A stretch of DNA of 21,249 nucleotides from a virus, in the IMG/VR virus record IMGVR_UViG_3300035228_001239, positions 1-21,249 of that record. One strand, written 5' to 3'. Each line of letters opens with the position of its first letter. Positions within the stretch are counted from its first letter, which is position 1. A program made the position numbers and the translations under genes. Of this stretch, positions 2,703 through 16,042 are shown piece after piece. Under the pieces are notes generated by a model, which had not been told where the DNA came from, did not search any database, and saw only the letters and a list, made by a program, of their open reading frames with translations.

Positions 2703-3257
2703 TTAAATTGCCCTACTATATCCCCGAAGCTGTGGGGGAACATGATCAATATTTGCAGAAATAACTATTCTTCTTCCCTCATGATTATCAGGAACCCAAT
2801 GGGGTAAACTAGCGTCAAACGCTAAAACTAATCCATTTTCTACAGATCTACATGTGTCTCCAAAACAAATAGGTGCAGAGTTTTCCTCCACATCAATATA
2901 AAAAATCAAAGACAACGCTGAGGGAAAGTGACTATGAAACTTTGTCCCTTCATTTGGACCATAATCCATAGCCCATAGATTAATTACCTCATATATGCCG
3001 TTAGTAGAAAAGTACTGCTTGCCAATAGAGTTTGCAACCCCTTCAAAGTAATTTACAATTGGAGAAAATCTAGAATCAACCTCATGAAGATTCCAAGCAG
3101 ATCTCCAGTTAGCATTGACATTGGAGTCCTTACATGTGTCTGGATTTTCTTTTTTGTAATCAAGAATGATTTGCTTGAACTCATCCAACCTTTCAGTCCA
3201 TTTAGACTCAAAAATTGGCATTTCAATCTGAACTTTTGACAGTGTTATGGCAGACAT
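2703..3257 (-). CDS. Putative 2OG-Fe(II) oxygenase-like protein (184 aa), paralogue 1
   Basis: This is likely a non-haem iron, 2-oxoglutarate-dependent oxygenase fold (double-stranded beta-helix); the substrate is unknown. The core runs from about residue 88: INLWAMDYGPNEGTKFHSHF, then SLIFYIDVEENSAP, a VENGLVLAFDASLPHWV strand pair and GRRIVISANID. Candidate metal ligands are His108/His110 and His153, with Arg162/163 for the 2OG carboxylate. The H-x-H (rather than H-x-D) pattern resembles the 2OG-FeII_Oxy_5 type seen in cyanophages. It aligns end to end with the next gene upstream, so the two arose by duplication. Their coding regions overlap by 13 bases. It is the last gene of the operon that starts with the protease-fibre gene. 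Confidence 0.65.
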   Translation of the reverse strand: MSAITLSKVQIEMPIFESKWTERLDEFKQIILDYKKENPDTCKDSNVNANWRSAWNLHEVDSRFSPIVNYFEGVANSIGKQYFSTNGIYEVINLWAMDYGPNEGTKFHSHFPSALSLIFYIDVEENSAPICFGDTCRSVENGLVLAFDASLPHWVPDNHEGRRIVISANIDHVPPQLRGYSRAI

Positions 3258-3805
3258 ACTTTATCGATATTCATGGCGATTGCTATTCTTCTTGCCTTGG
3301 TTGGTGGAACAAAATGTGTGAGTACTCCGGGGAATAAGACCATCATACCATTTTTAACATGAACCTCCTTGTCTTCTAAAAAGATAGGAGCAACATCTTC
3401 TTCCACATCTATGTAGTAGACGCATGACCATGCTGCAGAAAGGTGATCATGGGGAAGAGCTTGGTCACCCTTTTCCATGACAACTGCCCATAAGGACACC
3501 ACTTTATAATCTGCATTAGTGTCAAAGACATGCTTCATGATGTATTTTAGCACATGCAAAGCATAATCGCCAACAGGGATAAATCTTTCGTCAGTTTCGT
3601 ATGTGTCCCATTTGGTCAACCATGCTTTAACAGAATGGCCTGCTGTCTCGTTAGTATCCAGATACTCTGGATCTTTCTCTCTTTTTTCTAAAATTATATC
3701 TTTAAATTTATTAAATTCTTCAGGACCATCTTCAATGACGAAGGTGGGCAGATGACTGACCACCTTGTCATAGTGAATGATCTTAGATGTAAGTTCTCTC
3801 TCCAT
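3245..3805 (-). CDS. Putative 2OG-Fe(II) oxygenase-like protein (186 aa), paralogue 2
   Basis: Same family as the gene downstream, with the same domain order. Core: VVSLWAVVMEKGDQ, then LPHDHLSAAWSCVYYIDVEE, NGMMVLFPGVLTHFVPP and ARRIAIAMNIDKV. Candidate ligands are His119/His121 (with Asp120 between) and His164, with Arg172/173 for 2OG binding. Substrate unknown. ATG at 3803-3805 is chosen; an in-frame TTG at 3815-3817 would add four residues, and neither has a strong ribosome-binding site at ideal spacing. The 5' end overlaps the end of the protease-fibre gene by 23 bases, which ties its expression to that structural protein. It might modify a virion component or a host metabolite; the sequence does not decide. 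Confidence 0.65.
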   Translation of the reverse strand: MERELTSKIIHYDKVVSHLPTFVIEDGPEEFNKFKDIILEKREKDPEYLDTNETAGHSVKAWLTKWDTYETDERFIPVGDYALHVLKYIMKHVFDTNADYKVVSLWAVVMEKGDQALPHDHLSAAWSCVYYIDVEEDVAPIFLEDKEVHVKNGMMVLFPGVLTHFVPPTKARRIAIAMNIDKVCLP

Positions 3806-6800
3806 CCTGTCCGCCAAGTGTCATAATACTAAGTTCACCCAAGTCTTCAAGGGCAGGAATTCCATTATACACCCTAACGGTATATCCATTAACCGTTCTG
3901 TCAGAAATCCTAAGATTAACAATACCACCTGGGAAGGCATTTGTACCACTCGCGATGCCAATGACAGCATAATCAGTGTCATTCATTGCATCTGAGAAGT
4001 TCACATTGTATGTTCCAGTAGCAGTTTGTTCAATGGAGCTGACATTATGTGAGCGATCACCAGGAGTGTAGTCACTGTTGCCAACACCAAGATTACTATT
4101 CATGTACCAGGAAGTAGCACGACCTTCATAGAACTGGGTGTAAGTAGCAGTCTTGAGACCTACAAGGTTCTTAAACTCCCCAACTCTGCTGACCTTATGG
4201 AAATCATTATTAAACACTTGGATGGAGTTACCCATGTTTCCAAATCGTGTTCCAATACCAGCACCATAGTACAGAAGCTGAGGTGTGTTCTCATCAATGA
4301 GAATTTCAGTATAAGTTCCAGTCTCAGTTACATTATCAGAGAACTGGTTCGGAGTTGTTGTACCAAATCCTACTGCAGAACCATCTGGAGCATAGTAGAA
4401 CCTGATCGGATAGTTTGCCTGCTGTGATGCATTAGTAAAGCGATAGGTTTGACCTACTTCAAATCTCAGGTAAGGAGATTCATAACCCTGAACATTGATA
4501 GAACGATCAGATCCAATACCAAAGTATCTGTGATCTGTTGTCTTCGTACCAATAGTAGTAGGTAGAGGCTTGAATGTACCCTCAAACTGCGTGTAAAGGT
4601 TCTTAGCGGTGTCTGCAGCACCCGTTAAGGTGGAGAAACTAGAACTATTAGCAAAGAGTGCATTGTTTGCCTGAGAGGCAAGTCCAGCGAGCGTAGCGTA
4701 GGTAGCAATGCCAGCGACAATAGCCTCAGATGCAATGCCTGCAAGTGTAGCACGAGGTGCCTCGTTAATCGTTATTGTAACGATACCAGCAGAGACTGGA
4801 CTTACATCAAGACCAGCATTAAAGTTAACTGTTCCTGCTGTACCAACTGCGGATCCAGAGTCTTGGATAATGACACCAGAACCAGCAGCAACAATATTAG
4901 TTAACTGAGATCCGTCACCAATGAATCTCGGTGCAGTGATGTCATTATTAGATGTGATTGTGGCAGCTGCGTCCAATTGAGCAGCTGTTCCTGCAGTTGT
5001 TGCACTGTCAGCAGTTTGTGCCGAGGTCGCTGTAGTTGCTACCGTAGCAATTCCGGCAACAGTTGCAAAGTCTGCTTGAGTTGCTTTCGGAACAGAGACA
5101 CCAGCAGCAAGACTATTAGCAGTTTGTGCAACACTTACAGTATCCGCAGCAGTAATAGTGACAATACCAGCAGAGATTTGAGATACTGTCAGGTTTTGAC
5201 CGAAGTTAATGGTAGCAGCAGTGCCAATAGGACTATCATTGTCCTTAATGATAACACCTGCACCAACACCAGTTACACCAGTGATACCGGAACCATCACC
5301 AAAGAATGAAGTTGCAGTAATATTACCGGTAGTATTGACATTAATGTTTGTACCGATACCAGAAGGACCAGGATCCTGAGGTACAGAGTGAGCAACAAAT
5401 GTTAGGTTGGGTTTAGAACCACGAACAATCAGACTCTGACCTTTAGCAAGAGCAAGGTTATCAATCTGAACATCTTGTAGAGGAGCCAGTCTTAAACCAA
5501 ATACTAAGTAGTCAGACTCTTGGAACTCAGCGATACCACCAGATGACAGACCAACTGACATACCGACAGTAGAATCAGAGTTCTGGTTTGTAGCGTGAAC
5601 TGTGACTAGACTATCTTCTTGTGCTGTAAAAAACTCAAGGTTAGTATTGATCTGGAAAGGAGGTTTGAATCCAAGAGTACCAGATCTTCTTCTGCCATGA
5701 ACCAGAGCAGAGTCAGGGCCCAACTTATCAAACTTTCTAGTAGCAAAGGCAAGGAAAGAGATGTTAGGGTCGAAAGAAGATACGAAAATCTTATCTCCAG
5801 GTTTAATACCAACTTTCTCAATCAGTCTCGTACCACCTCTTTCTAGAGGAATACCATAAGTGATAAAATCACTCTTTTTAAATCCAGGTGTACTAGAGAT
5901 ACCAATAGAGAATGTAGAACGGAAGTCATTCTGGTTTGCAACACTGATACTAACCTCAAGGAGGTTATCTGCCTCATATAACTGGACGGGCTCAACAACA
6001 CCATTCGTCAGTGTTGTTTTAATAGAAGCAAGTCTACCTACCTCGGCAAGAGCGGCACCAGGAGTGGTGAATGTGACGACTGCTGAGAAAGGAGATGTAT
6101 GTTCAACACCAGATGTGCCATCAGCATTAGATAGATGACGACATCTTACATAGAAAGTATGACTAGAGTTAAGTCCGTCAGGAATTATTTGAGATAGAGA
6201 AGTATTATTATCACCAATACTAGTAAATACTATAGTACTAAATCCAATATCTTCAGCAACTTCAAATTCAACTGCTTTTAAAGTACCAGATACTGCTTCG
6301 CTATCAATAGAAACAAATGCACTGGATACAAGAGCAATACCAAATCTCTGATTCAGAGTAGATCCACTAATAGGTGATGTAACAGTAGGCGCTTGAACAC
6401 CAGGAGCATTACCTAAGGTAGAGAATGAAACAATACCTACAGAATAATCAGAGACATAAGCAGTGAATGCTGTACCATCATCATTAGACAGATGTCTTGT
6501 ACGAGCATAGTGAGTCGTAAAACCTGCTAACTGAACATCAACTGTTTGAATTACATTAGTATTATTATCTCCAGTAGATTCCCAAACAATAGAACTAAAG
6601 TCAGATGCGACTGAGAGTTGCATCTCAATTGCTTTTAGAGTACCAGATACGGTAGTGTCTCCAACAGCAATATATTCACTAGATCTTAATAGTAGCCCTT
6701 CAGTACTAATGCCAATATCATTATTAATTGGAGATTCAATAGAGGGTTCTGTAATACCAGCAAATTCTGTTAAGATGCCTGCGTTGACATCCAAGTAAAC

Positions 6801-8732
6801 AATTTGGACTAGACCATCTCCACTGGCAGTTCTTTGATTAAACTGTCCGGTCCACCATCGGTAATCAGAGACACCATAGTCGGGAGTAGAGAACTGATCG
6901 AATAGTAAATCACTACCGGCAGTAGTACTACCATAAGAAACGAGATTACTAGTACCACCATAACCCAGAGTACCCTTACCAACACCTTGTCCACAATCGT
7001 TTAATAGCCACTTCCTCAAATCATCAGATGTAGCACCGGGGTTTCTCTGTAGGTATAGAGCAACCAGTCCAGTAACTACAGGAGCAGCAGCGGATGTACC
7101 GTTGAAGTTAGCATCGAAATGAGTAGGGTTATCATATCTCTGGAAGTCTGCATAAGTTCCGCTAGGAAGACCAGCAGCTAGAGTATCCTCGGCAGGTGCA
7201 TAAATGTCAACACCAGGACCACTGTTAGAATATTGTGCTTTTCTTTCTTTAAAATTAGATTCTACAAAGTCATCAAGAGCACCCACATTAATAACAGGAT
7301 GGTATCCAGTAAACTCATTAAATCCAATGCCCTGAGGGTTCATCCAATCTCTATGGGATGTTGGTGTCCTCTGACCACCAAACTCAGTCCTTGGATCATT
7401 AGAACTAAATGTTAAATCCTCAACTCCATTAAGTCTATGAGGATCCGTAAATCCAAGACCAATATACTGGTTGTTATTACCAGCAGCAGCGACCATAATG
7501 ACACCGGCTTCCATCATCTCATCGCCAGCATTATTAGTGGCGTTAGATCTAGATGAAGAAGACCAGGATTTATAAGCACCAATCACTTGATTATTGAAAC
7601 CAATAATCATATCTTCGACACCAGATGGTTCTCCAGCGGCGAGAGTTGCTACATCAATTGCACTAGTAATACCAGTAAATTTATATCTTGCAACTCCTGT
7701 TGCAGGAACAGCAGCTTGGTAACCCCAAGAACCGTTAACAACCGTAGGATTTCTTACACCAGTTTGCGTATTTACTGGTTTATATAAGTGGAAGAACTTA
7801 ATGAGATCATAAGATGTCTCAATGTCCATACCAACATTATCAGACACACAAGGCATTGCCCAGATGTTTGACTTAAATGCCAGACCAAAGTTTTTACCAG
7901 CAGCAAGAGATGCAGCTGCAGTACCGTGACCACTACCTAAGTTATTAGAACCTGCAGTACCAATACCAATAGCACCATTCCTATTGTATCCAGAAGGAAT
8001 AGAAACTTCAGGAAGAAGAACAAACTCAGAAGATCTAGCGTTGTTATCTTCCCACCATGCTTCTGCTCTGCTGGTATCAATACCAGTAGATCCATCTGCT
8101 AATGTAAAAGTAAACCCATTGACAGCAAAATATCCAGGGTCAAGATAATATGGGAAGTCAAGAACAAGATCAAGCACCCTACTTGTTCCATCATCATTCA
8201 AGAATTCTGGGTGTGATTGCAGAGTACCAGAGTCTTGAACAACAATATCTACATCTCTACCATCATATAAGAAGTTAAAGTTACCCTGCTTAGGTGCAAT
8301 ATCACCAACAACACCAGCCCAAAACTCTCCGTTGGTTGTAATACCAGAAAGTCTAGGAAGTGCCCAGTTTGTTCTATTTAATTCTGCAGAGGTTGGATTT
8401 GTGGCTGGTGGACCATTACTATCTAAGTCCCTGTAAATTTTTACATCACCAGAAAATCTGTTGGGCATCACCAGAGATGGATCTGGAAAGCTTTCTCTAT
8501 TATCTTTTAGTGAAAGTTCAATCCACTTGACATAAGGATGACGACCAATCTCTTGAGCCTCATCATCCGTTAACTCATAAGTACCACGAACCGCACTGAT
8601 TGAGTGCGAGTCGGTACAAGTTATTTGTCTGTCTGGAATTCCATCTTGGTTTGAGTCAATGGTGAGAGCACCATGAATATCGTTCCAATGTTCCGCACTG
8701 GTAACTGCCAGGGTATATCTTTTAAGAGTCAT
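3783..8732 (-). CDS. Giant virion-type protein: N-terminal subtilisin-like protease fused to a fibre-like region (1649 aa)
   Basis: Residues about 1-75 resemble an inhibitor-I9-type propeptide (LTDDEAQEIGRHPYVKWIEL). An S8 subtilase domain follows at about 155-580 with a complete apparent catalytic set: Asp167 (IVVQDSG), His269 (GSGHGT), oxyanion Asn419 (AAAGNNN) and Ser547 (NGTSAAAP). Next come two Fn3-like repeats (about 690-770 and 812-888, both with SGTLKA and RHLSN), then two copies of a beta domain (about 900-1000 and 1022-1118). Two copies of a module with F-x-GDGS and SAGIVTIT follow (about 1133-1192 and 1262-1320), with Ala/Thr-rich stretches after them. A C-terminal domain of about 270 residues ends the protein. 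The modules after the protease resemble cyanophage tail-fibre proteins, so a virion role is likely. The protease could mature the fibre or cut host surface protein. A late-type box lies 33 bases upstream. Confidence 0.85.
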   Translation of the reverse strand: MTLKRYTLAVTSAEHWNDIHGALTIDSNQDGIPDRQITCTDSHSISAVRGTYELTDDEAQEIGRHPYVKWIELSLKDNRESFPDPSLVMPNRFSGDVKIYRDLDSNGPPATNPTSAELNRTNWALPRLSGITTNGEFWAGVVGDIAPKQGNFNFLYDGRDVDIVVQDSGTLQSHPEFLNDDGTSRVLDLVLDFPYYLDPGYFAVNGFTFTLADGSTGIDTSRAEAWWEDNNARSSEFVLLPEVSIPSGYNRNGAIGIGTAGSNNLGSGHGTAAASLAAGKNFGLAFKSNIWAMPCVSDNVGMDIETSYDLIKFFHLYKPVNTQTGVRNPTVVNGSWGYQAAVPATGVARYKFTGITSAIDVATLAAGEPSGVEDMIIGFNNQVIGAYKSWSSSSRSNATNNAGDEMMEAGVIMVAAAGNNNQYIGLGFTDPHRLNGVEDLTFSSNDPRTEFGGQRTPTSHRDWMNPQGIGFNEFTGYHPVINVGALDDFVESNFKERKAQYSNSGPGVDIYAPAEDTLAAGLPSGTYADFQRYDNPTHFDANFNGTSAAAPVVTGLVALYLQRNPGATSDDLRKWLLNDCGQGVGKGTLGYGGTSNLVSYGSTTAGSDLLFDQFSTPDYGVSDYRWWTGQFNQRTASGDGLVQIVYLDVNAGILTEFAGITEPSIESPINNDIGISTEGLLLRSSEYIAVGDTTVSGTLKAIEMQLSVASDFSSIVWESTGDNNTNVIQTVDVQLAGFTTHYARTRHLSNDDGTAFTAYVSDYSVGIVSFSTLGNAPGVQAPTVTSPISGSTLNQRFGIALVSSAFVSIDSEAVSGTLKAVEFEVAEDIGFSTIVFTSIGDNNTSLSQIIPDGLNSSHTFYVRCRHLSNADGTSGVEHTSPFSAVVTFTTPGAALAEVGRLASIKTTLTNGVVEPVQLYEADNLLEVSISVANQNDFRSTFSIGISSTPGFKKSDFITYGIPLERGGTRLIEKVGIKPGDKIFVSSFDPNISFLAFATRKFDKLGPDSALVHGRRRSGTLGFKPPFQINTNLEFFTAQEDSLVTVHATNQNSDSTVGMSVGLSSGGIAEFQESDYLVFGLRLAPLQDVQIDNLALAKGQSLIVRGSKPNLTFVAHSVPQDPGPSGIGTNINVNTTGNITATSFFGDGSGITGVTGVGAGVIIKDNDSPIGTAATINFGQNLTVSQISAGIVTITAADTVSVAQTANSLAAGVSVPKATQADFATVAGIATVATTATSAQTADSATTAGTAAQLDAAATITSNNDITAPRFIGDGSQLTNIVAAGSGVIIQDSGSAVGTAGTVNFNAGLDVSPVSAGIVTITINEAPRATLAGIASEAIVAGIATYATLAGLASQANNALFANSSSFSTLTGAADTAKNLYTQFEGTFKPLPTTIGTKTTDHRYFGIGSDRSINVQGYESPYLRFEVGQTYRFTNASQQANYPIRFYYAPDGSAVGFGTTTPNQFSDNVTETGTYTEILIDENTPQLLYYGAGIGTRFGNMGNSIQVFNNDFHKVSRVGEFKNLVGLKTATYTQFYEGRATSWYMNSNLGVGNSDYTPGDRSHNVSSIEQTATGTYNVNFSDAMNDTDYAVIGIASGTNAFPGGIVNLRISDRTVNGYTVRVYNGIPALEDLGELSIMTLGGQDGERTYI

Positions 8733-8764
8733 GCCTCAAAATCTATCGGTGAGCACCTTTTTTA

Positions 8765-8772
8765 TATTTAGG
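8765..8772 (-). promoter_or_regulatory. Putative late promoter box (CCTAAATA) for the protease-fibre operon
   Basis: The minus strand carries CCTAAATATAAAA 33 bases upstream of the fibre ATG. The CTAAATA core recurs at a similar position upstream of other minus-strand operons in this window (1198, 16063, 17898). It resembles the T4 late box TATAAATA. Confidence 0.5.
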
Positions 8773-8774
8773 TA

Positions 8775-8783
8775 TGGTAGAAT
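8775..8783 (+). promoter_or_regulatory. Extended -10 promoter for hldD
   Basis: The plus strand reads TGGTAGAAT, an extended -10 (TG-n-TAGAAT, one mismatch from TATAAT). The predicted start near 8790 leaves a leader of about 16 bases that includes AAAGAG as a ribosome-binding site. The surrounding TATGGTAGAATAT nearly matches the promoter of the glycosyltransferase operon at 16088. No good -35 was seen. Confidence 0.5.
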
Positions 8784-8805
8784 ATATATTATAAAGAGTC
8801 TTACT

Positions 8806-9600
8806 ATGAATATTGTTACTGGAGCAAAAGGTTTCATCGGTAGTCATTTTGCTAAGACCATGAATGATGTTCTTGAAATTGATATTGATAATTGTTTTGA
8901 TCTTCTAAACAAATTCAATCGTTGGGACGAAGTAGATATGATTATTCATATGGGTGCTCGTTCCTTTACAACAGATAAGGATGTTGACCTAGTTTATAAG
9001 TATAATATTGATTATAGTATAAAGTTATTTGAGAAAGCCATTGAGCATGGAATTCCAGTAAAGTATGCATCCTCGGCATCTACTTATGGCAAGTGTGATT
9101 CTGGTCCCATCATCAATCCTCTAAATTACTACGCGCTATCTAAAGCAACTGTTGATTACTGGGTGCAAGATAACATGCATAGATTCTCCCATATCCAGGG
9201 GTTTAAGTTCTTTAATGTATATGGTAGCGGTGAGGTCCACAAAGGAGAGCAGGCAAGCCTTGTAAGTAAGTTCAAGTGGCAATCTGCTACAGGCAAAGTT
9301 CACCCCTTTGAAGGATCAAATAAGGTACATAGAGATTATATCTGGGTGGGGGACATTGTAAGTGTTGTGCTCACTAATAGTGCAGGCAGTGGCATATACG
9401 ATCTAGGAACTGGTGCCGCAATTACTATTCAAGAGGTGGCAGATTTAGTCGCACAAAAAACCGAGGCTATGGTAGAGGAAGTTCCCTTCCCACCAAACCT
9501 CGTTGGTAAGTATCAATACAATACTCAAGCAGATATGAATTGGTTAACTTATAAGTTCAAAACCGTTGATGATTATGTCAATCACCACGATGAATTCTGA
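8806..9600 (+). CDS. hldD: ADP-L-glycero-D-manno-heptose 6-epimerase-like protein (264 aa)
   Basis: HldD is an SDR-fold epimerase that converts ADP-D-glycero-heptose to ADP-L-glycero-heptose, the donor for heptosyltransferases. Visible features: the nucleotide-binding loop GAKGFIGSH at the N-terminus, Ser-rich SSASTYG (about 89-95), catalytic Y109-x3-K113 (YYALSK), the HldD-specific FNVYGSGEVHKGEQAS (about 136-151, containing the second Lys), RDYIWVGD, and a C-terminal PFPPNLVGKYQYNTQAD that closely follows the HldD pattern. At 264 residues it is shorter than bacterial HldD (about 310). The start is ATG at 8806 (MNIVTGAKG, AAAGAG upstream); the frame extends 25 codons further, but that extension covers the promoter. 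It is the only plus-strand gene, divergent from the fibre gene and overlapping the cupin gene tail-to-tail by 23 bases. Confidence 0.88.
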   Translation: MNIVTGAKGFIGSHFAKTMNDVLEIDIDNCFDLLNKFNRWDEVDMIIHMGARSFTTDKDVDLVYKYNIDYSIKLFEKAIEHGIPVKYASSASTYGKCDSGPIINPLNYYALSKATVDYWVQDNMHRFSHIQGFKFFNVYGSGEVHKGEQASLVSKFKWQSATGKVHPFEGSNKVHRDYIWVGDIVSVVLTNSAGSGIYDLGTGAAITIQEVADLVAQKTEAMVEEVPFPPNLVGKYQYNTQADMNWLTYKFKTVDDYVNHHDEF

Positions 9601-9940
9601 TCGAGTCTGAGTCAAAGTGTTGCGTTGAAAACTCAAACAGTTCAGAGTCATCCAAAGCAATCATCTGATGCTTTAGTCCAGGAGGAACATAAAACTTATC
9701 CCCAGGTTCTAAGACTAACAATTCTGATTTACTAAGATCGTCATCCCACCCATAATATAATGAGATGAGGCCACTCTGTAAGTAGAAGGTCTCATCTTTT
9801 AGTATGTGATAATGCCAAGAGCATCTCTTATTCTTTTCAATGAATAAGAGTTTGCCACAATACATTTTATTATTTACAATCCACTTTTCATATCCCCATC
9901 CTTTGGATACGATTTTAATGTCTGAAGAAGTCTTTGTCAT
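9578..9940 (-). CDS. Cupin-fold sugar-metabolism protein (120 aa)
   Basis: This is a single-domain cupin, a small beta-barrel usually binding one metal ion. The first cupin motif is seen as CSWHYHILKDETFYLQSG (about 39-56, two His and one Glu ligand) and the second as PGDKFYVPPGLKHQMIAL (about 78-95, third His). The N-terminal KGWGYEKWIVNN resembles the start of cupin domains in mannose-6-phosphate isomerase/mannose-1-phosphate guanylyltransferase relatives. Its place at the end of a nucleotide-heptose operon suggests a sugar or sugar-phosphate isomerase or epimerase role. One speculative possibility is a stand-in for the missing sedoheptulose-7-phosphate isomerase, but GmhA belongs to a different fold. 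ATG at 9938-9940 has AAAGGA upstream and overlaps the HAD gene by 26 bases. Confidence 0.75.
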   Translation of the reverse strand: MTKTSSDIKIVSKGWGYEKWIVNNKMYCGKLLFIEKNKRCSWHYHILKDETFYLQSGLISLYYGWDDDLSKSELLVLEPGDKFYVPPGLKHQMIALDDSELFEFSTQHFDSDSIRIHRGD

Positions 9941-10241
9941 TGATTCCTTTGTCGTCTATGTAGTAATCAGCTGAAGGTTTTCCTAAGTATAGATTGTGAA
10001 ACTTACATCCCCACGATTCTATTTGATTCTTAGTAAAGTCATAAAACTCTTTCTCAGATAGATCTCTATCGTTATTATATCTACCCATACCTCTAGCAGT
10101 AAGATAGGTAATGATATGTCCCTCATCATAGAGTTTATTTATTGTTTGTATGCGATCCCACATGGGTGTTGCGTGGGTATACCTGTGTTCTCCTTGTCCA
10201 GGAAAACAAATAGTACCGTCAATATCAACAGTATATCTCAT
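9915..10241 (-). CDS. Small HAD-superfamily phosphatase (108 aa)
   Basis: This is a minimal HAD-type phosphohydrolase. Motif I is DIDGTI at about residues 6-11 (nucleophile Asp6, acid/base Asp8), motif II is LTARG (about 47-51), and the C-terminal LGKPSADYYIDDKGIND supplies the motif III Lys and motif IV Asp pair. It has no cap domain. The layout matches a small HAD family found in bacterial capsule and LPS gene clusters. In context it is a candidate for the GmhB step (heptose-1,7-bisphosphate to heptose-1-phosphate), though it is much shorter than GmhB and lacks its Cys/His zinc site. That assignment is inference. The start overlaps the stop of the upstream carbamoyltransferase as ATGA, indicating translational coupling. 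Confidence 0.78.
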   Translation of the reverse strand: MRYTVDIDGTICFPGQGEHRYTHATPMWDRIQTINKLYDEGHIITYLTARGMGRYNNDRDLSEKEFYDFTKNQIESWGCKFHNLYLGKPSADYYIDDKGINDKDFFRH

Positions 10242-12073
10242 TCGGAATCATCAACTAAACTATAATTAATTTTTCCCCGTTTACCACTGTTAGAATTCTC
10301 TGGTATGTACAACATTTTAGAACATTCTGGGAAATAAACATACTCTAGTTCAGATCTCTTCAAAGTATCAACAGCATCTTGAACTGTCTCACAAATCGTA
10401 TCTCCCCCAAGATTAAAAGAAGTATTAAGGAGCATTGGTATGCCAGTTCTATTGTAAAACTCTTCTATCAATTTATAATAATTTTCGTTCTGGTCTTTAG
10501 AAACTGTTTGAATTCTACATGTCTTATCAACATGAAGAACTCCGGGAATTTTATCCCAATTTTTCTCATGAGCATTGACAGCAAACATCATGAAAGGACT
10601 TTCTTCAAGTCCACGCATATCAAACCAGTCATTAACATGGTCCAACAATACTGATGCAGCAAAAGGTCTCCACAGTTCACGACCTTTCTTTTTATTCATA
10701 ATAAATTGTGCTTTTGGATTTCTAGGATCAAAAAGTAAAGATCTATTTCCAAGAGCACGAGGTCCTTGTTCCGATCTCCCCTGAAAGATTGCTACTGGAT
10801 TGCCTTCCATGATCCTATCAACAACTGGTCCAACCCCCGTAACAAAGTATGAACTCTCCGGGATTATATGATTATTTGGTGGACCGAGGTAGAGACTCTT
10901 CAAAGGTTTGATCTCGGTTGACTTAGTTTGTTGTCTCCACTCAAGCATTGCTTGCCCAGCAGAGAGACCAGCATCATAGCAAATTGGTTCAACAAATAAT
11001 TTACCACCCTCGGGTAAGTATTTTAAGTATTCGTAGTTAGCTACACAATTTAAAGCACATCCACCAGACAGCACAACATTTTTACATCCAGTAATTTCAA
11101 CTGCTTTTTTGATGAGAGAAATCATATAAGACTCAAAGTCTTTTTGCATCTTATATGAAAGATCACAATTAACAGAGAATTTAACTCTCGGATCCTCAAC
11201 TTGATCTGGTGCCGTCAGAGCAGGACCAGCCCTAACCGAATCATCTTCCTCTCGTATACATCTCTTTGCCCCATCATTATACATCTTAAATAGATCAATC
11301 TTTCCACTTGGAGCAATGTAATCATAATAATCAATGAGAACACCGTTCATTATACGAACGAATATATCCTCATTCACTTCACCATCAATTACAAATGGTT
11401 TTATATTGTCATTATCTTTTCCGTATGGAGCAAGACCCATCGTCTTTCCAGATGCAGTATAGTCAAATCCAATGTACTCACTAGCTGCAGCATATGCCAT
11501 ACCAATTCCCGTGGTTGGATTTTCAACCTTCTCATCAGTTTCAATGAACACTGGGACATATCTTTGATGTAGTAGTTCAAAGTTATGTGGATAAGAAGCT
11601 TTATAAATGCTTTCAACTTCATGACCACCCTTATTGATAGCTCCAGCGCCATCAACAACTACTACGGCAGCTTCTTTGAATCCAGAATTATAAAAACCAA
11701 TAGAAGCATGAGACAAATGGTGTTGGTTTTCAAACGACTTACATTTATATTTGTTTTTTCTCATCACTTTAGAAGCAACAAGAAGACAAATATCAATAGA
11801 ATCACCTACCATTTTCTTTTCCAGAGGAATTTCAATGGTAGTATATGCAATCAAGGAATCGTTAGATACAATTCCATTCCCTGTCAAGATAGACATGAGA
11901 GGATATGAATCATGTTTTCTATGAGTCAGTCTTTCTTCTTCTATCATCCATTGAACTTTACCATCGACAAGATAACATACCGAAGCATCGTGAGCAATGT
12001 TCATCGATAAGATATGTTTAACATTATCAGGTAGAATCGGAACTTTGGTTTGATGGTCAAACAATTTACTCAT
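10238..12073 (-). CDS. NodU/CmcH-family O-carbamoyltransferase 1 (611 aa)
   Basis: Enzymes of this family move a carbamoyl group from carbamoyl phosphate, through a carbamoyl-adenylate, onto a hydroxyl of a sugar or antibiotic. The N-terminal Kae1/YgjD-like domain has the metal-binding HHLSH (about 118-122) followed by VVVVDGAGA. The C-terminal domain has LSGGCALNCVANYEYLK, the family signature GPRALGNRSLL, RPFAASVL and LLNTSFNLGGD. The length of 611 residues matches complete family members. An acceptor sugar made or transferred by the same operon is the likely target. It is clearly paralogous to the carbamoyltransferase at 13215-15038 but diverged, so the two may modify different hydroxyls. 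ATGA overlaps exist at both its start (with the kinase) and its stop (with the HAD gene). Confidence 0.9.
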   Translation of the reverse strand: MSKLFDHQTKVPILPDNVKHILSMNIAHDASVCYLVDGKVQWMIEEERLTHRKHDSYPLMSILTGNGIVSNDSLIAYTTIEIPLEKKMVGDSIDICLLVASKVMRKNKYKCKSFENQHHLSHASIGFYNSGFKEAAVVVVDGAGAINKGGHEVESIYKASYPHNFELLHQRYVPVFIETDEKVENPTTGIGMAYAAASEYIGFDYTASGKTMGLAPYGKDNDNIKPFVIDGEVNEDIFVRIMNGVLIDYYDYIAPSGKIDLFKMYNDGAKRCIREEDDSVRAGPALTAPDQVEDPRVKFSVNCDLSYKMQKDFESYMISLIKKAVEITGCKNVVLSGGCALNCVANYEYLKYLPEGGKLFVEPICYDAGLSAGQAMLEWRQQTKSTEIKPLKSLYLGPPNNHIIPESSYFVTGVGPVVDRIMEGNPVAIFQGRSEQGPRALGNRSLLFDPRNPKAQFIMNKKKGRELWRPFAASVLLDHVNDWFDMRGLEESPFMMFAVNAHEKNWDKIPGVLHVDKTCRIQTVSKDQNENYYKLIEEFYNRTGIPMLLNTSFNLGGDTICETVQDAVDTLKRSELEYVYFPECSKMLYIPENSNSGKRGKINYSLVDDSE

Positions 12074-12864
12074 AGTCCTAAAATCCTATCAACATCATCC
12101 ATCCTGATAGTATATGTACCAGGATTCTGTACTGCAACTGCTGCTGCCTTGTTAGCAAAAGAAATAGACTCTTCCATAACAGGGAGCTGAATATAATAAA
12201 ATACCAGAGCAGCAAGAAAAGTATCTCCTGCTCCAGTAACATCAAAAGTTCTTACAAGATCTTTGCAAGGAAACTTTTTCTTGTTCCACAAGGCACCATC
12301 AGCACCAAGAGTAACAATCATATTTTCCCCGTTAGGAATGTCACTAGAATCTAATTGTTCAAACTCCTTCTGATTTATCTTGTAGATAACATTACTAAAC
12401 TGAGTAGGTAGTTTAGTTTTCTTCGTGTCAACAAATATCTTTGTACTCGGATACCTACCGGCAATATAACTAATGGTCTCAGTATCAGGTAGAAATCCTT
12501 TATTGTAATCGGAGATTATAATTGCATCATAAGTATCATGCATCAGTGCCATTTGCAACTGAGATGGATGCAATGGTTTTACATTAGATTCAGAGTCTAC
12601 TCGGACGATTTGCTGACCACTCTTCTGATCAATATATCGTGTCTTCTTTAGCAACTCTGTATTACATATAAAACTTACAGTGATGCCGAGTGATTCTAGA
12701 TTCTGCTTAACATTACCTGCCATACCGGAAGCAGTATCTGTACCAGTTTCAACAAGGACAGGTACAGGTGCTTCTGGACTCAGACGATCACAGTCTCCAT
12801 AGACCCACTCATCGGTACAATTATCCCCGATCAATAATACTTTGTATTGTTTTGCTAGTTGCAT
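12070..12864 (-). CDS. hldA: HldE/HldA-type heptose-phosphate kinase (PfkB family, 264 aa)
   Basis: By analogy with the HldE kinase domain it would phosphorylate D-glycero-D-manno-heptose-7-phosphate at C1 using ATP. The N-terminus reads VLLIGDNCTDEWVYGDCDRL followed by SPEAPVPV; the SPEAPVPV segment is characteristic of HldE. Further features: SGMAGNV (substrate/glycine segment), KTRYID and QQIVRVD matching the HldE middle, SDYNKG, and the PfkB signature DVTGAGDTF (about 208-216, catalytic base Asp214). It is about 50 residues shorter than the E. coli HldE kinase domain, partly through loss of a segment after the GG loop. In bacteria this domain is often fused ahead of the nucleotidyltransferase; here the two are separate genes in reverse order with a 44-base overlap. 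The start ATG has only a weak ribosome-binding site, so it may depend on coupling. Confidence 0.85.
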   Translation of the reverse strand: MQLAKQYKVLLIGDNCTDEWVYGDCDRLSPEAPVPVLVETGTDTASGMAGNVKQNLESLGITVSFICNTELLKKTRYIDQKSGQQIVRVDSESNVKPLHPSQLQMALMHDTYDAIIISDYNKGFLPDTETISYIAGRYPSTKIFVDTKKTKLPTQFSNVIYKINQKEFEQLDSSDIPNGENMIVTLGADGALWNKKKFPCKDLVRTFDVTGAGDTFLAALVFYYIQLPVMEESISFANKAAAVAVQNPGTYTIRMDDVDRILGL

Positions 12865-13222
12865 AATTTTCTAAACGATCAAAGAATTTCAATTCGGCGG
12901 CATACATGGAACCGATAACACTTTTATCTTTCCAATCCGATCCGACTATCATTATATCAGGTTGATATGCTTTTATCAAGTTCTCTAGTTCTTCATCACT
13001 AGAGAAAGAGAAAACTTTATCTACAGACTTAAGTGCCAATAGCATTACTTGTCTATCTAGACACGAATTAACAGGTCTAGATTCACCTTTCATCTCTCTA
13101 ACTCTAGCGTCAGTGTCGATAGCGACAGCAACTTCATCACCTTGGGACTGGGCATAATCTAAAAGTGCAAGGTGCCCACGATGAAGAACATCAAATGTCC
13201 CATTAACAAATACTTTAGTCAT
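12821..13222 (-). CDS. hldC: HldE/HldC-type heptose-1-phosphate nucleotidyltransferase (133 aa)
   Basis: By analogy it joins heptose-1-phosphate and ATP to make ADP-heptose. It is a cytidylyltransferase-fold enzyme with NGTFDVLHRGH at the N-terminus (H-x-G-H at 14-17), then VAVAIDTDARVREMKGESRP and VN, a segment that closely parallels the HldE C-terminal domain (SDAS-x-KRLKG-x-SRPVNP). VGSDWKDKSVIGS occupies the place of KGGDY in bacterial HldE, and the C-terminal ATSKTIQSI corresponds to the STT-x-II segment. Full length for a stand-alone domain. A glycerol-3-phosphate or other cytidylyltransferase cannot be excluded, but the neighbouring HldE-like kinase and HldD-like epimerase favour ADP-heptose. 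It overlaps the upstream carbamoyltransferase by 8 bases and the downstream kinase by 44. Confidence 0.85.
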   Translation of the reverse strand: MTKVFVNGTFDVLHRGHLALLDYAQSQGDEVAVAIDTDARVREMKGESRPVNSCLDRQVMLLALKSVDKVFSFSSDEELENLIKAYQPDIMIVGSDWKDKSVIGSMYAAELKFFDRLENYATSKTIQSIIDRG

Positions 13223-15038
13223 TAGAAACTTTTACAATCTTACCATATTCAGGAAGATATAGATACTCGATGTCAGAATTTGCAAGGGTCCGAAGAGCAT
13301 CATCAAGAGTTTCTACAAGAGGTTCTCCACCAAGATTGAAAGATGTATTGAACAGAATAGGAACACCAGTCTTCTCATAAAAAGTATTGATCAAATCGTA
13401 ATAGTTTTTATTCTGCTCTGGTGTGACAGTTTGAATACGACATGTTTTATCAACATGAATAATAGAGGGAATTTTTTCGTCCACTCCAGGTTGACAGTTG
13501 ACTGCATACATCATGTGAGGAGTCTCTTCCAAACCACGCAGATCAAACCATTCATCAACATGTTCTTTGAGAATTGAACCCGCGAAGGGACGGAAGAACT
13601 CACGATGTTTGATTGTATTTACAAAATCTTTACCGTCAGGATCACGGGGATCATAAAGGATAGAACGGTTACCAAGAGCACGAGGACCAGATTCAGATCT
13701 ACCTTGGAACATAGCAACAATGTTCTTTGTAGTAATGAGATCAATTACATCTTGATTAGAACCTTCGGATACTTCGCCACCATACTTTTCTGTAGTCTCA
13801 ATGATATCACTGGCATTATAATGATGCTCAGGTCCCAGATACAAACTTTCGGCATATGGTTTAACTTCGGTATCATTATTAGCATAATGATGCCAGAACA
13901 AAGCTGCTCCAATAGCAGTTCCTGCATCATTACTTACTGGTTCAACATAAATGTCAATTCCTTCATCCTTGAGTTGCTCTAAGTAATAATAGTTGGCAAC
14001 ACAGTTAAGACCATATCCACCAGAAATAGCGACATTTTTAATTCCAGTAAGATTAACAGAAAATCTGATCAAATCTAAAACTTGTTCTTGAGAATCTTTT
14101 TGAATCTTATAGGAGAGATCCTTACGATTCTTTAGTCTAACCAAGTCTTTGAATGACACATCAATAGGAGTAGACAACTCTCTATTAAGTTGGTCATTTA
14201 CAATAGCACCATTTGGATAAGTTGGAGTAATTAATGACTGATTTACAGGTCTATAGTGAGGAACAAACTCATTATTTTCACGAAAAATTTCTGGGATATT
14301 TTCATTCTCACTACCATAAGGGAAAAGTCCCATAGTTTTACCTGCTTCAATAGAATCAAATCCATTGTACTGAGTTACAGCTTCGTATGCTTTTACAATT
14401 CCAGCAGAGGAATCTGCAATCAGGATACATTCCGAATCATCAGAGTGGTCAAACTGATTATTTTTAAATGATGGATCAATAAGAAGTGGTCTTAGTCCAT
14501 TACCACCCAAATGCCTATACCTCGCCTCAATTTGTGCAGGGTAAGAACATTGGAAAACACTTTCAGTTTCATAAAGCATCATTTGACGACCATTCATAAC
14601 ATGATCGTAAAAGGTGCCAGCACCATCAACAACTACAGATACTGCTTTATCAAATCCCGAACGATAAAACGCACAGGTTGCATGAAGCTTATGGTGAATA
14701 TTACCTACATCAATAACTTGAGGGTGAGTTTGTTGTTCGGGATCATAATTTGCTTCGCTAGAAATCAATCCTAATTTTCTAGCGAAAGAAGTGTATGGAT
14801 CCTCCCCACAATAATCCAGTTTGGCAGCACTGTTTTTCATCAACTGTGTGTGTGCTACTACTAGATAATCTAATTTATCAGTATACTCTTTGATTTTTAA
14901 AATAGAAAGTAAGGGTGCTCCATCATACTTTTTACGAGAGAGTCTTTCTTCTTCAATGGCAAAGACAACTTCACCATCCTTTAGTAAACAAACACCAGCG
15001 TTATGTCCACGGGTGATGCCAGCAATCCATTGTGTCAT
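13215..15038 (-). CDS. NodU/CmcH-family O-carbamoyltransferase 2 (607 aa)
   Basis: A second complete carbamoyltransferase with the same architecture as the one at 10238-12073. The N-terminal domain has HHKLH (about 115-119) and VSVVVDGAG. The C-terminal domain has ISGGYGLNCVANYYYLE, GPRALGNRSILYDPRDPDGK, RPFAGSIL and ILFNTSFNLGGEP. The two proteins share motifs and length but differ widely elsewhere, for example in the segment before GPRALGNRS and in the region between the two domains. This suggests an old duplication or separate acquisition, and different acceptors. It starts by ATGA overlap with the glycosyltransferase gene and ends overlapping the nucleotidyltransferase by 8 bases. Carbamoyl phosphate would come from the host arginine/pyrimidine pathway. 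Confidence 0.9.
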   Translation of the reverse strand: MTQWIAGITRGHNAGVCLLKDGEVVFAIEEERLSRKKYDGAPLLSILKIKEYTDKLDYLVVAHTQLMKNSAAKLDYCGEDPYTSFARKLGLISSEANYDPEQQTHPQVIDVGNIHHKLHATCAFYRSGFDKAVSVVVDGAGTFYDHVMNGRQMMLYETESVFQCSYPAQIEARYRHLGGNGLRPLLIDPSFKNNQFDHSDDSECILIADSSAGIVKAYEAVTQYNGFDSIEAGKTMGLFPYGSENENIPEIFRENNEFVPHYRPVNQSLITPTYPNGAIVNDQLNRELSTPIDVSFKDLVRLKNRKDLSYKIQKDSQEQVLDLIRFSVNLTGIKNVAISGGYGLNCVANYYYLEQLKDEGIDIYVEPVSNDAGTAIGAALFWHHYANNDTEVKPYAESLYLGPEHHYNASDIIETTEKYGGEVSEGSNQDVIDLITTKNIVAMFQGRSESGPRALGNRSILYDPRDPDGKDFVNTIKHREFFRPFAGSILKEHVDEWFDLRGLEETPHMMYAVNCQPGVDEKIPSIIHVDKTCRIQTVTPEQNKNYYDLINTFYEKTGVPILFNTSFNLGGEPLVETLDDALRTLANSDIEYLYLPEYGKIVKVSND

Positions 15039-16042
15039 TGTCCAAATCCTTTGTTAGGTTCACAGCAAGAATTATTACTTGGAGTTTCTGGAGATGCAGT
15101 TCCAGAGTAAGGTTTAGACTTTCCCAGTCTCTTCCTACAAGAAGTAATAACCCTTTTAATATCTTCCTTACTCATTTCCATACATTCATCATTCATTAGA
15201 TCTTGATAATCCTCCATGGTGAGTCTGATAGGAGAGAATGTTCTCTTACCCTCTCCAAGATCAAGTATATCAAAATCTTTATCACCAGGATAAGAAATAT
15301 TCTCTGGATAAGTAGAACCAATTACAGCAGTGACTGTAGTGCCTACAGACTTAGCAATATGTTGACCAACTGAATCACATCCTAAGAAGTGATCGGCACA
15401 TTCAATAATACCTGCCCATGTACGAATATCTCCCTGAGGCCAAGCACATGGAATTTTACTTTCATCCACATCAATAGGAAACTGAAATTCGGACATGATA
15501 ATGACACCATAATCTTCTCTAAGATTATTGATGATATCTACAATATAACTTTGATGGAAACTCCTAGAACTAGGATCAATAATATAGTCTCCTCTAACCT
15601 CAGCGGTTCTACCGAAGGGTTGAATAACAATAGTCTTTTCTTTACCAGTCTTTGCTTTAATTTCTTCTACAATGTTGATAGCACTAATAGCTTCAGATTT
15701 AGAGAGTTTAATTTTTGGTGTAGGAAGTTCTCTTGGTTCTGTAAGACCATTGATTTCCATATCAAATGCTTGAGCAATATTACACTGCTGATTGTAATAG
15801 TGCCACTGACGATATGGTTCTGGAGTTACACAATCTCTAGGTTTGATATAATCTTCAAAAAGATTTTTATGCCAATTATCAAAGGAATATTTGTGCAGAA
15901 TAGGATGACCTTTAAAGAAATTCATTCCGCCTTCACATACGATAATAAAATCATCATGAGTTTCTGCGTATTTTTCAAATGCAGGGATGGAACTAATTAC
16001 TCTACCAGCACCACCATTGATAAAGAATGCTTTTGATCTCAT
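15035..16042 (-). CDS. GT9-type (heptosyltransferase-like) glycosyltransferase (335 aa)
   Basis: GT9 enzymes, such as WaaC and WaaF, are GT-B-fold transferases that usually move heptose from ADP-heptose onto LPS core; some relatives glycosylate proteins. The N-terminal FFINGGAGRVISSIPAFEKY fits the first Rossmann strand and loop of the acceptor domain. The donor-domain signature is ECADHFLGCDSVGQHIAKSV with the D-S-x-G-x-H core at about 223-228, then TAVIGSTYPENISYPG. IVIQPFGRTAEVRGDY corresponds to the inter-domain strand where GT9 proteins have their donor-side glycine/arginine segment. The last 25 residues are Pro/Ser-rich and contain SCCEPNKG, unusual for the family. It is the first gene of the cassette operon, with an extended -10 promoter and a late box upstream. 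Confidence 0.8.
   Translation of the reverse strand: MRSKAFFINGGAGRVISSIPAFEKYAETHDDFIIVCEGGMNFFKGHPILHKYSFDNWHKNLFEDYIKPRDCVTPEPYRQWHYYNQQCNIAQAFDMEINGLTEPRELPTPKIKLSKSEAISAINIVEEIKAKTGKEKTIVIQPFGRTAEVRGDYIIDPSSRSFHQSYIVDIINNLREDYGVIIMSEFQFPIDVDESKIPCAWPQGDIRTWAGIIECADHFLGCDSVGQHIAKSVGTTVTAVIGSTYPENISYPGDKDFDILDLGEGKRTFSPIRLTMEDYQDLMNDECMEMSKEDIKRVITSCRKRLGKSKPYSGTASPETPSNNSCCEPNKGFGQ

What the first reader, a model, noticed from the sequence alone, without database searches (positions are those of the whole stretch)
3783..8732. Subtilisin-like protease with propeptide fused to a tail-fibre-like protein
The N-terminal 580 residues carry an apparent complete Asp/His/Asn/Ser subtilase set and a propeptide-like lead; the remaining 1050 residues are fibre-type repeats. 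A virion-borne serine protease could digest host surface-layer or outer-membrane proteins at adsorption, or cut itself during fibre maturation. Virion proteases of this class are unusual compared with glycan depolymerases.
Basis: partly seen in the sequence, partly recalled or inferred. Interest (0 to 1): 0.75.

Follow-up and report, generated by a model that had tools for sequence, protein, structure and literature searches.

The report
Tail-fibre-linked protease of marine cyanophages
A virus, probably of ocean cyanobacteria, makes one long protein that joins a complete, well-preserved proteinase-K-type protein-cutting enzyme, with its own likely built-in inhibitor, to a tail fibre, which suggests that some of these viruses carry a protein-digesting tool on their tails.

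Summary
The minus-strand ORF 3783-8732 (1649 aa) has a subtilase domain (PF00082, E 1.6e-21) with Asp167, His269, Asn419 and Ser547 in place, unchanged in 48 of 48 aligned rows and in 10 of 10 reference phage proteins. A predicted structure matches proteinase-K-type enzymes (Z 26-28). Residues 1-87, modelled alone, match subtilase pro-domains best. The C-terminal third matches tail-fibre families. It is not a one-off: the family (phrog_9158, 'unknown function') occurs in many T4-like cyanophages, mostly as a separate gene, beside a fibre-like gene in 30 of 49 loci (1 of 258 other ORFs), and joined to different C-terminal modules on several branches. One relative, S-SCSM1 ORF228, is labelled a virion protein in a record whose labels roughly track published virion mass spectrometry. 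Best explanation: a tail-borne zymogen protease that digests host surface proteins at adsorption. Catalytic competence is well supported; virion location is supported only through a relative; substrate and timing are inferred. My searches of one open-access library (nine, listed under Tried and rejected) listed no paper describing a tail-borne phage subtilase.

The parts
3783..8732 (-). Whole ORF, 1649 aa: pro-domain, subtilase, linker, repeats, tail-fibre module
   Evidence: 18 complete fused relatives align with it from residue 1
8472..8732 (-). Residues 1-87: propeptide-like (I9-type fold) domain, beta-alpha-beta-beta-alpha-beta
   Evidence: model m989fa5a2e2b3, pLDDT 76; the twelve best structural rows are subtilase pro-domains, pro-enzymes or the inhibitor POIA1, Z 6.7-7.8; best unrelated row Z 6.5
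8457..8504 (-). Residues 77-92: predicted junction where self-processing would occur
   Evidence: in the twelve best rows the pro-domain match ends at model residues 83-87; in the 16 best rows mature chains align from residues 85-93; region 77-115 is 58-67% identical while 1-76 is 79-93% in L010, L012, L027, L039, with no such contrast in L002 and L003
6963..8468 (-). Residues 89-590: proteinase-K-type subtilase domain
   Evidence: PF00082 E 1.6e-21; Z 27.6 to keratinase 5wsl, 27.2 to aqualysin I 4dzt, 26.2 to proteinase K 2prk
8232..8234 (-). Asp167 codon (catalytic Asp by homology)
   Evidence: invariant 48 of 48 rows; conserved in 10 of 10 reference phage proteins
7926..7928 (-). His269 codon (catalytic His by homology)
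7476..7478 (-). Asn419 codon (oxyanion-hole Asn by homology)
7092..7094 (-). Ser547 codon (nucleophile by homology)
6738..6962 (-). Residues 591-665: variable linker
   Evidence: 58-68% identity in L003, L010, L012, L027, L039 and 87% in L002, the lowest or second lowest region in each; pLDDT below 50 at 593-595, 601-606 and 616-633
6051..6737 (-). Residues 666-894: two repeats of about 110 residues
   Evidence: 41% identity, E 2e-23 for the single comparison
5343..6032 (-). Residues 901-1130: second, weaker repeat pair; 901-1140 is the region most conserved between L003, L010, L012, L027, L039 and the window
   Evidence: 92-99% identity and dN/dS 0.04-0.07 in six fused relatives
3786..5318 (-). 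Residues 1139-1649: tail-fibre module
   Evidence: phrog_6942 E 1e-22, phrog_30742 E 2e-13, phrog_11355 E 5.4e-9, all 'tail fiber protein'

Best explanation
The protein is a zymogen subtilase carried on the phage tail. It is made in the host cytoplasm without a signal peptide, folded and held inactive by its N-terminal I9-type pro-domain, and built into the tail through its C-terminal fibre half; relatives made as a separate protein instead keep a short conserved C-terminal tail that may be a docking peptide. After self-processing near residues 83-93 the protease, held at the fibre base or baseplate by a flexible linker, digests host outer-surface proteins during adsorption and so opens the way to the receptor or membrane. 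Shown here: the conserved catalytic set, fibre homology, linkage to fibre-like genes, joining to different modules; predicted: the folds of protease and pro-domain. Supported through one relative: presence in virions. Inferred: activity, processing site, docking, position on the virion, substrate and timing.
For: Active-site set complete in 71 of 76 rows (75 loci plus the query); the 5 others are truncated and show no substitution. Invariant in 48 of 48 chosen rows and present in 10 of 10 reference phage proteins, seven of them 24-34% identical to the query over the matched part. Purifying selection on the protease: dN/dS 0.15-0.23 in six comparisons. Fold: Z 26-28. Pro-domain fold. A fibre-like ORF directly adjacent in 30 of 49 separate-gene loci against 1 of 258 other ORFs (near copies not removed); in eight named cyanophages the gene lies among tail fibre, tail or baseplate genes (for S-T4). 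S-SCSM1 ORF228 carries '(virion protein)'; counted by eye, 48 CDS carry that label, the paper reports 45 proteins by mass spectrometry, and the three it names are labelled; several structural homologues lack the label. C-terminal partners are adhesin-like: fibre here, LamG lectin in S-SCSM1, Ig plus an esterase-like domain in S-TIM54. A C-terminal pattern fits 52 of 54 separate-gene proteins against 21 of 1711 other ORF ends (the pattern was written after seeing the tails).
Against: No activity, cleavage or virion evidence for this very protein. The link from S-SCSM1 label to mass spectrometry is inferred: 48 labels against 45 reported proteins, ORF228 is not named in the main text, and the supplement could not be read. 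S-CREM1 has the gene and 14 virion proteins were detected, but its main text never uses the words peptidase or protease. In 19 of 49 loci no fibre-like ORF lay next door. In S-TIM54 the gene follows the portal and a small virion gene, not fibre genes, and in Agrobacterium phage Atu_ph07 the neighbours are unnamed. The protease sits at the N-terminal end, where T4-type fibres usually attach (recalled), which would put it near the baseplate rather than at the fibre tip. The S-SCSM1 authors warn that some detected proteins may be carry-over.
Confidence: 0.5

Rival explanations
1. Tail maturation protease: it trims its own fibre half or neighbouring fibre and baseplate proteins during assembly and has no role on the host surface.
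For: Linkage to fibre and baseplate genes, including very large neighbours; the variable linker at 591-665 could be a cut site.
Against: Most relatives found are separate proteins without a fibre in cis. Joining to lectin, Ig and esterase-like modules is not expected of a maturation enzyme. I did not search for a conserved cut motif.
Confidence: 0.25
2. It acts inside or on the dying host late in infection (lysis, release from debris, removal of surface proteins from lysate), and its presence in virions is incidental.
For: No signal peptide, so it is probably cytoplasmic until lysis; carry-over in virion preparations is possible.
Against: Joining to fibre and adhesin-like modules on several branches and the conserved C-terminal tail argue for an anchored enzyme.
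Confidence: 0.15
3. Structural, non-catalytic use of the subtilase fold as a fibre or baseplate domain.
For: A S-CAM1 'putative proximal tail fiber protein' matches the model in the viral structure library (E 2.8e-20; its active site was not examined), and phrog_15006 'tail fiber protein' overlaps the S-CREM1 protease region.
Against: Asp, His, Asn and Ser kept wherever the rows reach them, also in S-SCSM1 annotated as baseplate wedge subunit, and a retained N-terminal domain in 36 of 36 aligned rows.
Confidence: 0.04
4. The fusion is an assembly or frame artefact of this contig.
For: None found.
Against: Eighteen complete fused ORFs on other contigs form one clade with this one, support 100/100.
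Confidence: 0.01

Closest known systems
PHROG 9158 (unknown function), including P-SSM2 PSSM2_297 (T4-GC 292, 'contains PF00082 domain'), S-T4 gp070, S-CREM1 SCREM1_165 and S-WAM2 gp058
   Same: Same family match, subtilase with an N-terminal extension, fibre or baseplate neighbourhood
   Different: These are separate proteins of 552-611 aa as annotated or translated; here the protease is joined to a 1050-residue C-terminal half ending in a fibre module
S-SCSM1 ORF228 (QFG06492.1, 'baseplate wedge subunit (virion protein)')
   Same: N-terminal domain and subtilase, large C-terminal extension, fibre neighbourhood
   Different: Extension holds LamG/concanavalin-like lectin domains, not this fibre module; 26.9% identity over residues 4-577
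Cyanophage S-TIM54 UYE97265.1 (2140 aa, 'virion structural protein')
   Same: N-terminal domain, subtilase and fibre-like C-terminus in one chain
   Different: An esterase-like domain lies between the N-terminal domain and the protease, and Ig domains follow
Proteinase K family of secreted subtilases (aqualysin I 4dzt, proteinase K 2prk, keratinase 5wsl)
   Same: Predicted catalytic fold and order of catalytic residues; pro-domain of the same fold class as other subtilases
   Different: No signal peptide; larger domain; joined to a phage fibre

Membership tests
Peptidase family S8 (subtilases, PF00082) | Profile match above the curated cut-off | tested here: met
   77.3 bits against a cut-off of 21.8; 48 of 48 rows of A1 match at E<=1
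Peptidase family S8 (subtilases, PF00082) | Asp-His-Ser triad in that order plus oxyanion Asn | tested here: met
   D167, H269, N419, S547
Peptidase family S8 (subtilases, PF00082) | Subtilisin fold | tested here: met
   predicted model, pLDDT 79, Z 26-28 over 257-272 residues in the 16 best rows
Peptidase family S8 (subtilases, PF00082) | Proteolytic activity | not testable with these tools
   needs an assay
Subtilase propeptide / inhibitor I9 (PF05922, number recalled) | Match to the Pfam I9 profile | tested here: not met
   no I9 match among the 12 families listed for 48 rows at E<=1; a PDB profile search with 36 pro-domains found none. I call it I9-type by fold, not an I9 member
Subtilase propeptide / inhibitor I9 (PF05922, number recalled) | Propeptide fold N-terminal to the protease | tested here: met
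   best 12 structural rows are subtilase pro-domains, pro-enzymes or POIA1, Z 6.7-7.8. Weak points: Z below 8, unrelated folds from rank 13 (Z 6.5), and no Foldseek match at E<=0.001 (best 7.4e-3, pro-subtilisin E)
Phage tail fibre proteins | C-terminal homology to known fibre families | tested here: met
   three 'tail fiber protein' PHROGs, E 1e-22 to 5e-9
Phage tail fibre proteins | Present in the virion | tested here: inconclusive
   label of a distant relative only
Phage tail sheath 'subtilisin-like domain' (PF04984) | Match to PF04984 | tested here: inconclusive
   not among the Pfam matches at E<=0.1; the match is to the peptidase family instead

The most novel reading that the evidence does not exclude
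T4-like cyanophages carry a general tail-borne proteolytic entry device: a self-inhibited subtilase tethered to the baseplate or fibres, by a docking peptide when separate and by covalent fusion when joined to fibre, lectin or Ig/esterase modules, that digests host surface proteins, the protein counterpart of glycan depolymerases.
Probability: 0.4. Interest if true: 0.75.

Novelty: new variant of a known kind. Interest (0 to 1): 0.55.

Why it matters
Tail enzymes that degrade host glycans are well known; a tail-linked protein-digesting zymogen would be a different way of crossing the surface of some of the commonest photosynthetic cells in the sea. Phages with the gene have been isolated on laboratory hosts (for example S-T4, S-SCSM1, S-TIM54, P-SSM2), so virion location, processing and substrate can be tested directly. 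It would also give a function to PHROG 9158, now listed as unknown.

Tried and rejected
Pfam search of 48 rows and a PDB profile search with the pro-domain alignment found no pro-domain by sequence; only the fold comparison did. A self-BLAST of the whole protein printed no internal repeats, but direct comparison of the segments did, so that self-BLAST was uninformative. I checked S-CREM2 ORF128, an unknown virion protein with 93 unique peptides near a short tail fibre gene, as a possible hidden subtilase: no PF00082 match. An HMM of the C-terminal tail was run against ORFs of the loci then held: below E 0.05 it found only subtilases or pieces of them, P-SSM2 included.

Literature (PMC open-licence library only): nine searches for cyanophage with subtilisin, peptidase S8, proteomes or serine protease, and for phage, tail or virion with subtilase, subtilisin-like, proteinase K-like or virion-associated protease listed no paper whose title or abstract start describes a tail-borne phage subtilase; two searches showed 20 of 85 and 20 of 854 papers. 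A tenth search was for S-SCSM1. Seen as passages only: PMC9004378 and PMC12796325 (there 'subtilisin' refers to the tail sheath), PMC3037559 (it mentions an S8 peptidase cluster in P-HM1 and P-HM2 without a role), PMC9146016, PMC9964418. Passages plus one section: PMC10665884, PMC9602691.

Rows left out: the search for related loci matched 80 stretches, 75 distinct loci, which is at its output cap, so more may exist. One search used 47 of those 75 loci (near copies, truncated ORFs, L059 with a broken frame and L066 with an insertion were dropped). One search dropped 9 loci by name and any short match. One search used the 48 rows plus 9 of 10 reference proteins (Atu_ph07 left out), counts an unidentified extension in L051 (cut by the contig end) and L055 as a fusion, is a quick search, and warns of long branches at S-WAM2, S-SSM7, S-TIM54 and others. 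In one search only loci with both ends of the gene inside were counted; some of the 19 without a fibre-like neighbour have little flanking sequence. One search aligned ten relatives and printed six.
Full report
What is there. The minus-strand ORF 3783-8732 encodes 1649 residues. Residues 165-590 match PF00082 (E 1.6e-21) and residues 3-589 match phrog_9158, a family of unknown function (E 2.7e-77). Tail-fibre PHROGs match residues 1139-1196, 1377-1531 and 1560-1602. Between them lie a variable linker and two pairs of repeats.

Is the protease intact? Asp167, His269, Asn419 and Ser547 lie in canonical motifs; the profile alignments to aqualysin I and keratinase pass through all four motifs. Of 75 related viral loci plus the query, 71 of 76 rows show all four residues; the other five are truncated and show no substitution. 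In a chosen set of 48 rows, 45-86% identical to the query, all four are invariant. Ten of ten reference phage proteins keep them: seven are 24-34% identical over the matched part, S-T4 and Sf-CH5 52-54%, and Atu_ph07 matches over only 14% of the query. dN/dS between the window and six fused relatives is 0.15-0.23 over the protease. The predicted structure (pLDDT 79, pTM 0.80) aligns to proteinase-K-type enzymes with Z 26-28. I could not measure active-site distances.

The pro-domain. No I9 profile match was found. Modelled alone (pLDDT 76), residues 1-87 have the order beta-alpha-beta-beta-alpha-beta, and the twelve best structural rows are subtilase pro-domains, pro-enzymes or the inhibitor POIA1, Z 6.7-7.8. 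Against this: Z is below 8, unrelated folds appear from rank 13 at Z 6.5, and Foldseek had no match at E<=0.001. For it: one class fills the top twelve rows, the domain sits where a pro-domain should, and it is kept in 36 of 36 aligned rows. Alignment ends suggest processing near residues 83-93, not 76; this is inference.

Who carries it. Photosystem reaction-centre genes occur in 4 of 6 related contigs tested and the T4-type capsid gene in 3 of 6, so the window most likely comes from a T4-like cyanophage; the window itself holds neither. Of 50,697 phage records, 50 match the first 582 residues at E<=0.01: 47 are named Synechococcus or Prochlorococcus phage, cyanophage or 'Marine virus', two are Agrobacterium jumbo phage records and one an unnamed bacteriophage; several are duplicate entries of one phage.

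Architecture. Most relatives found are separate proteins, usually of about 640-660 residues; 18 complete loci have the fused form, and with the window they form one clade (100/100). In a second, quicker tree that also holds S-SCSM1 and S-TIM54, the fused state needs at least four changes, gains or losses; some branches are long, and one case is an unidentified extension (L051/L055). Partners differ: fibre (window), LamG lectin (S-SCSM1), Ig plus an inserted esterase-like domain (S-TIM54), which makes separate gains likelier. Separate proteins end in a short conserved peptide after a spacer that can be a run of Pro-Asp repeats; a pattern written after seeing these tails fits 52 of 54, against 21 of 1711 other ORF ends, one of which is a piece of the broken subtilase in L059. 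I read it as a docking tail; that is inference.

Neighbourhood. In 30 of 49 separate-gene loci an ORF matching this protein's fibre half lies directly before (22) or after (8) the protease, against 1 of 258 other ORFs of at least 150 aa. In S-T4, S-SSM7, P-SSM2, S-CREM1, S-H38, S-WAM2, Sf-CH5 and S-SCSM1 the gene lies among tail fibre, tail or baseplate genes (the S-T4 neighbours are recognised as fibre). In S-TIM54 it follows the portal and a small virion gene, and in Atu_ph07 the neighbours are unnamed.

Virion evidence. In the authors' record of S-SCSM1, ORF228 (the relative) is noted as 'baseplate wedge subunit (virion protein)'. Counted by eye, 48 CDS bear such a label in product or note; [quoted passage not shown] section read). 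Several structural homologues are not labelled (for example ORF17, 209, 211, 215, 245). So the label most likely marks detection, with a small mismatch, but ORF228 itself is not named in the main text. For S-CREM1 the main text does not use the words peptidase or protease, so I cannot say whether its enzyme was among 14 detected proteins.

How it most likely works. A cytoplasmic, self-inhibited subtilase is built into the tail through its fibre half and digests host surface proteins at adsorption. The lectin, Ig, fibre and esterase-like partners favour action on a cell surface over a pure maturation role, and separate-gene relatives have no fibre in cis to mature. A maturation role in trans remains the main rival. 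The substrate is unknown.

Verdict. Real, conserved and probably catalytic; a fused variant of a family found in many cyanophages but unexplained in the sources searched.

Noticed in passing
window 8731-9600 (+), 12070-12864 (-), 12821-13222 (-), 9915-10241 (-), 15035-16042 (-): Genes resembling the ADP-heptose pathway: HldD-like epimerase (TIGR02197, E 7e-55), separate HldE-like kinase (TIGR02198, E 5e-41) and adenylyltransferase (TIGR02199, E 5e-30), a HAD-type phosphatase and a weakly heptosyltransferase-like protein. All these NCBIfam matches are below the curated cut-offs.
   Followed up: partly
window 10238-12073 and 13215-15038 (-): Two NodU/Nol-like carbamoyltransferases on either side of the kinase and adenylyltransferase genes.
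   Followed up: partly
window 2703-3257 and 3245-3817 (-): Two 2OG-Fe(II) oxygenase-like genes directly after the protease-fibre gene; the nearer ORF as listed overlaps its 3' end by 35 bases.
   Followed up: no
L079:7995-14417 (S-TIM54): One 2140-residue chain with N-terminal domain, an esterase-like domain, subtilase and Ig domains: two enzyme-like domains in one annotated virion protein.
   Followed up: partly
L059:7992-9927: The protease gene is split over two overlapping frames on a contig whose capsid gene also shows in-frame TGA codons; it may be low-quality sequence or a decayed or recoded genome.
   Followed up: no
L066, L067, L073 near the C-terminus of the protease gene: Pro-Asp repeat spacer before the conserved C-terminal peptide.
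   Followed up: no
window residues 901-1140 (5313-6032): A highly conserved segment of the fused protein (92-99% identity, dN/dS 0.04-0.07 in six relatives), with almost no family match (only the first residues of a fibre PHROG match at 1139); possibly the virion attachment part.
   Followed up: no
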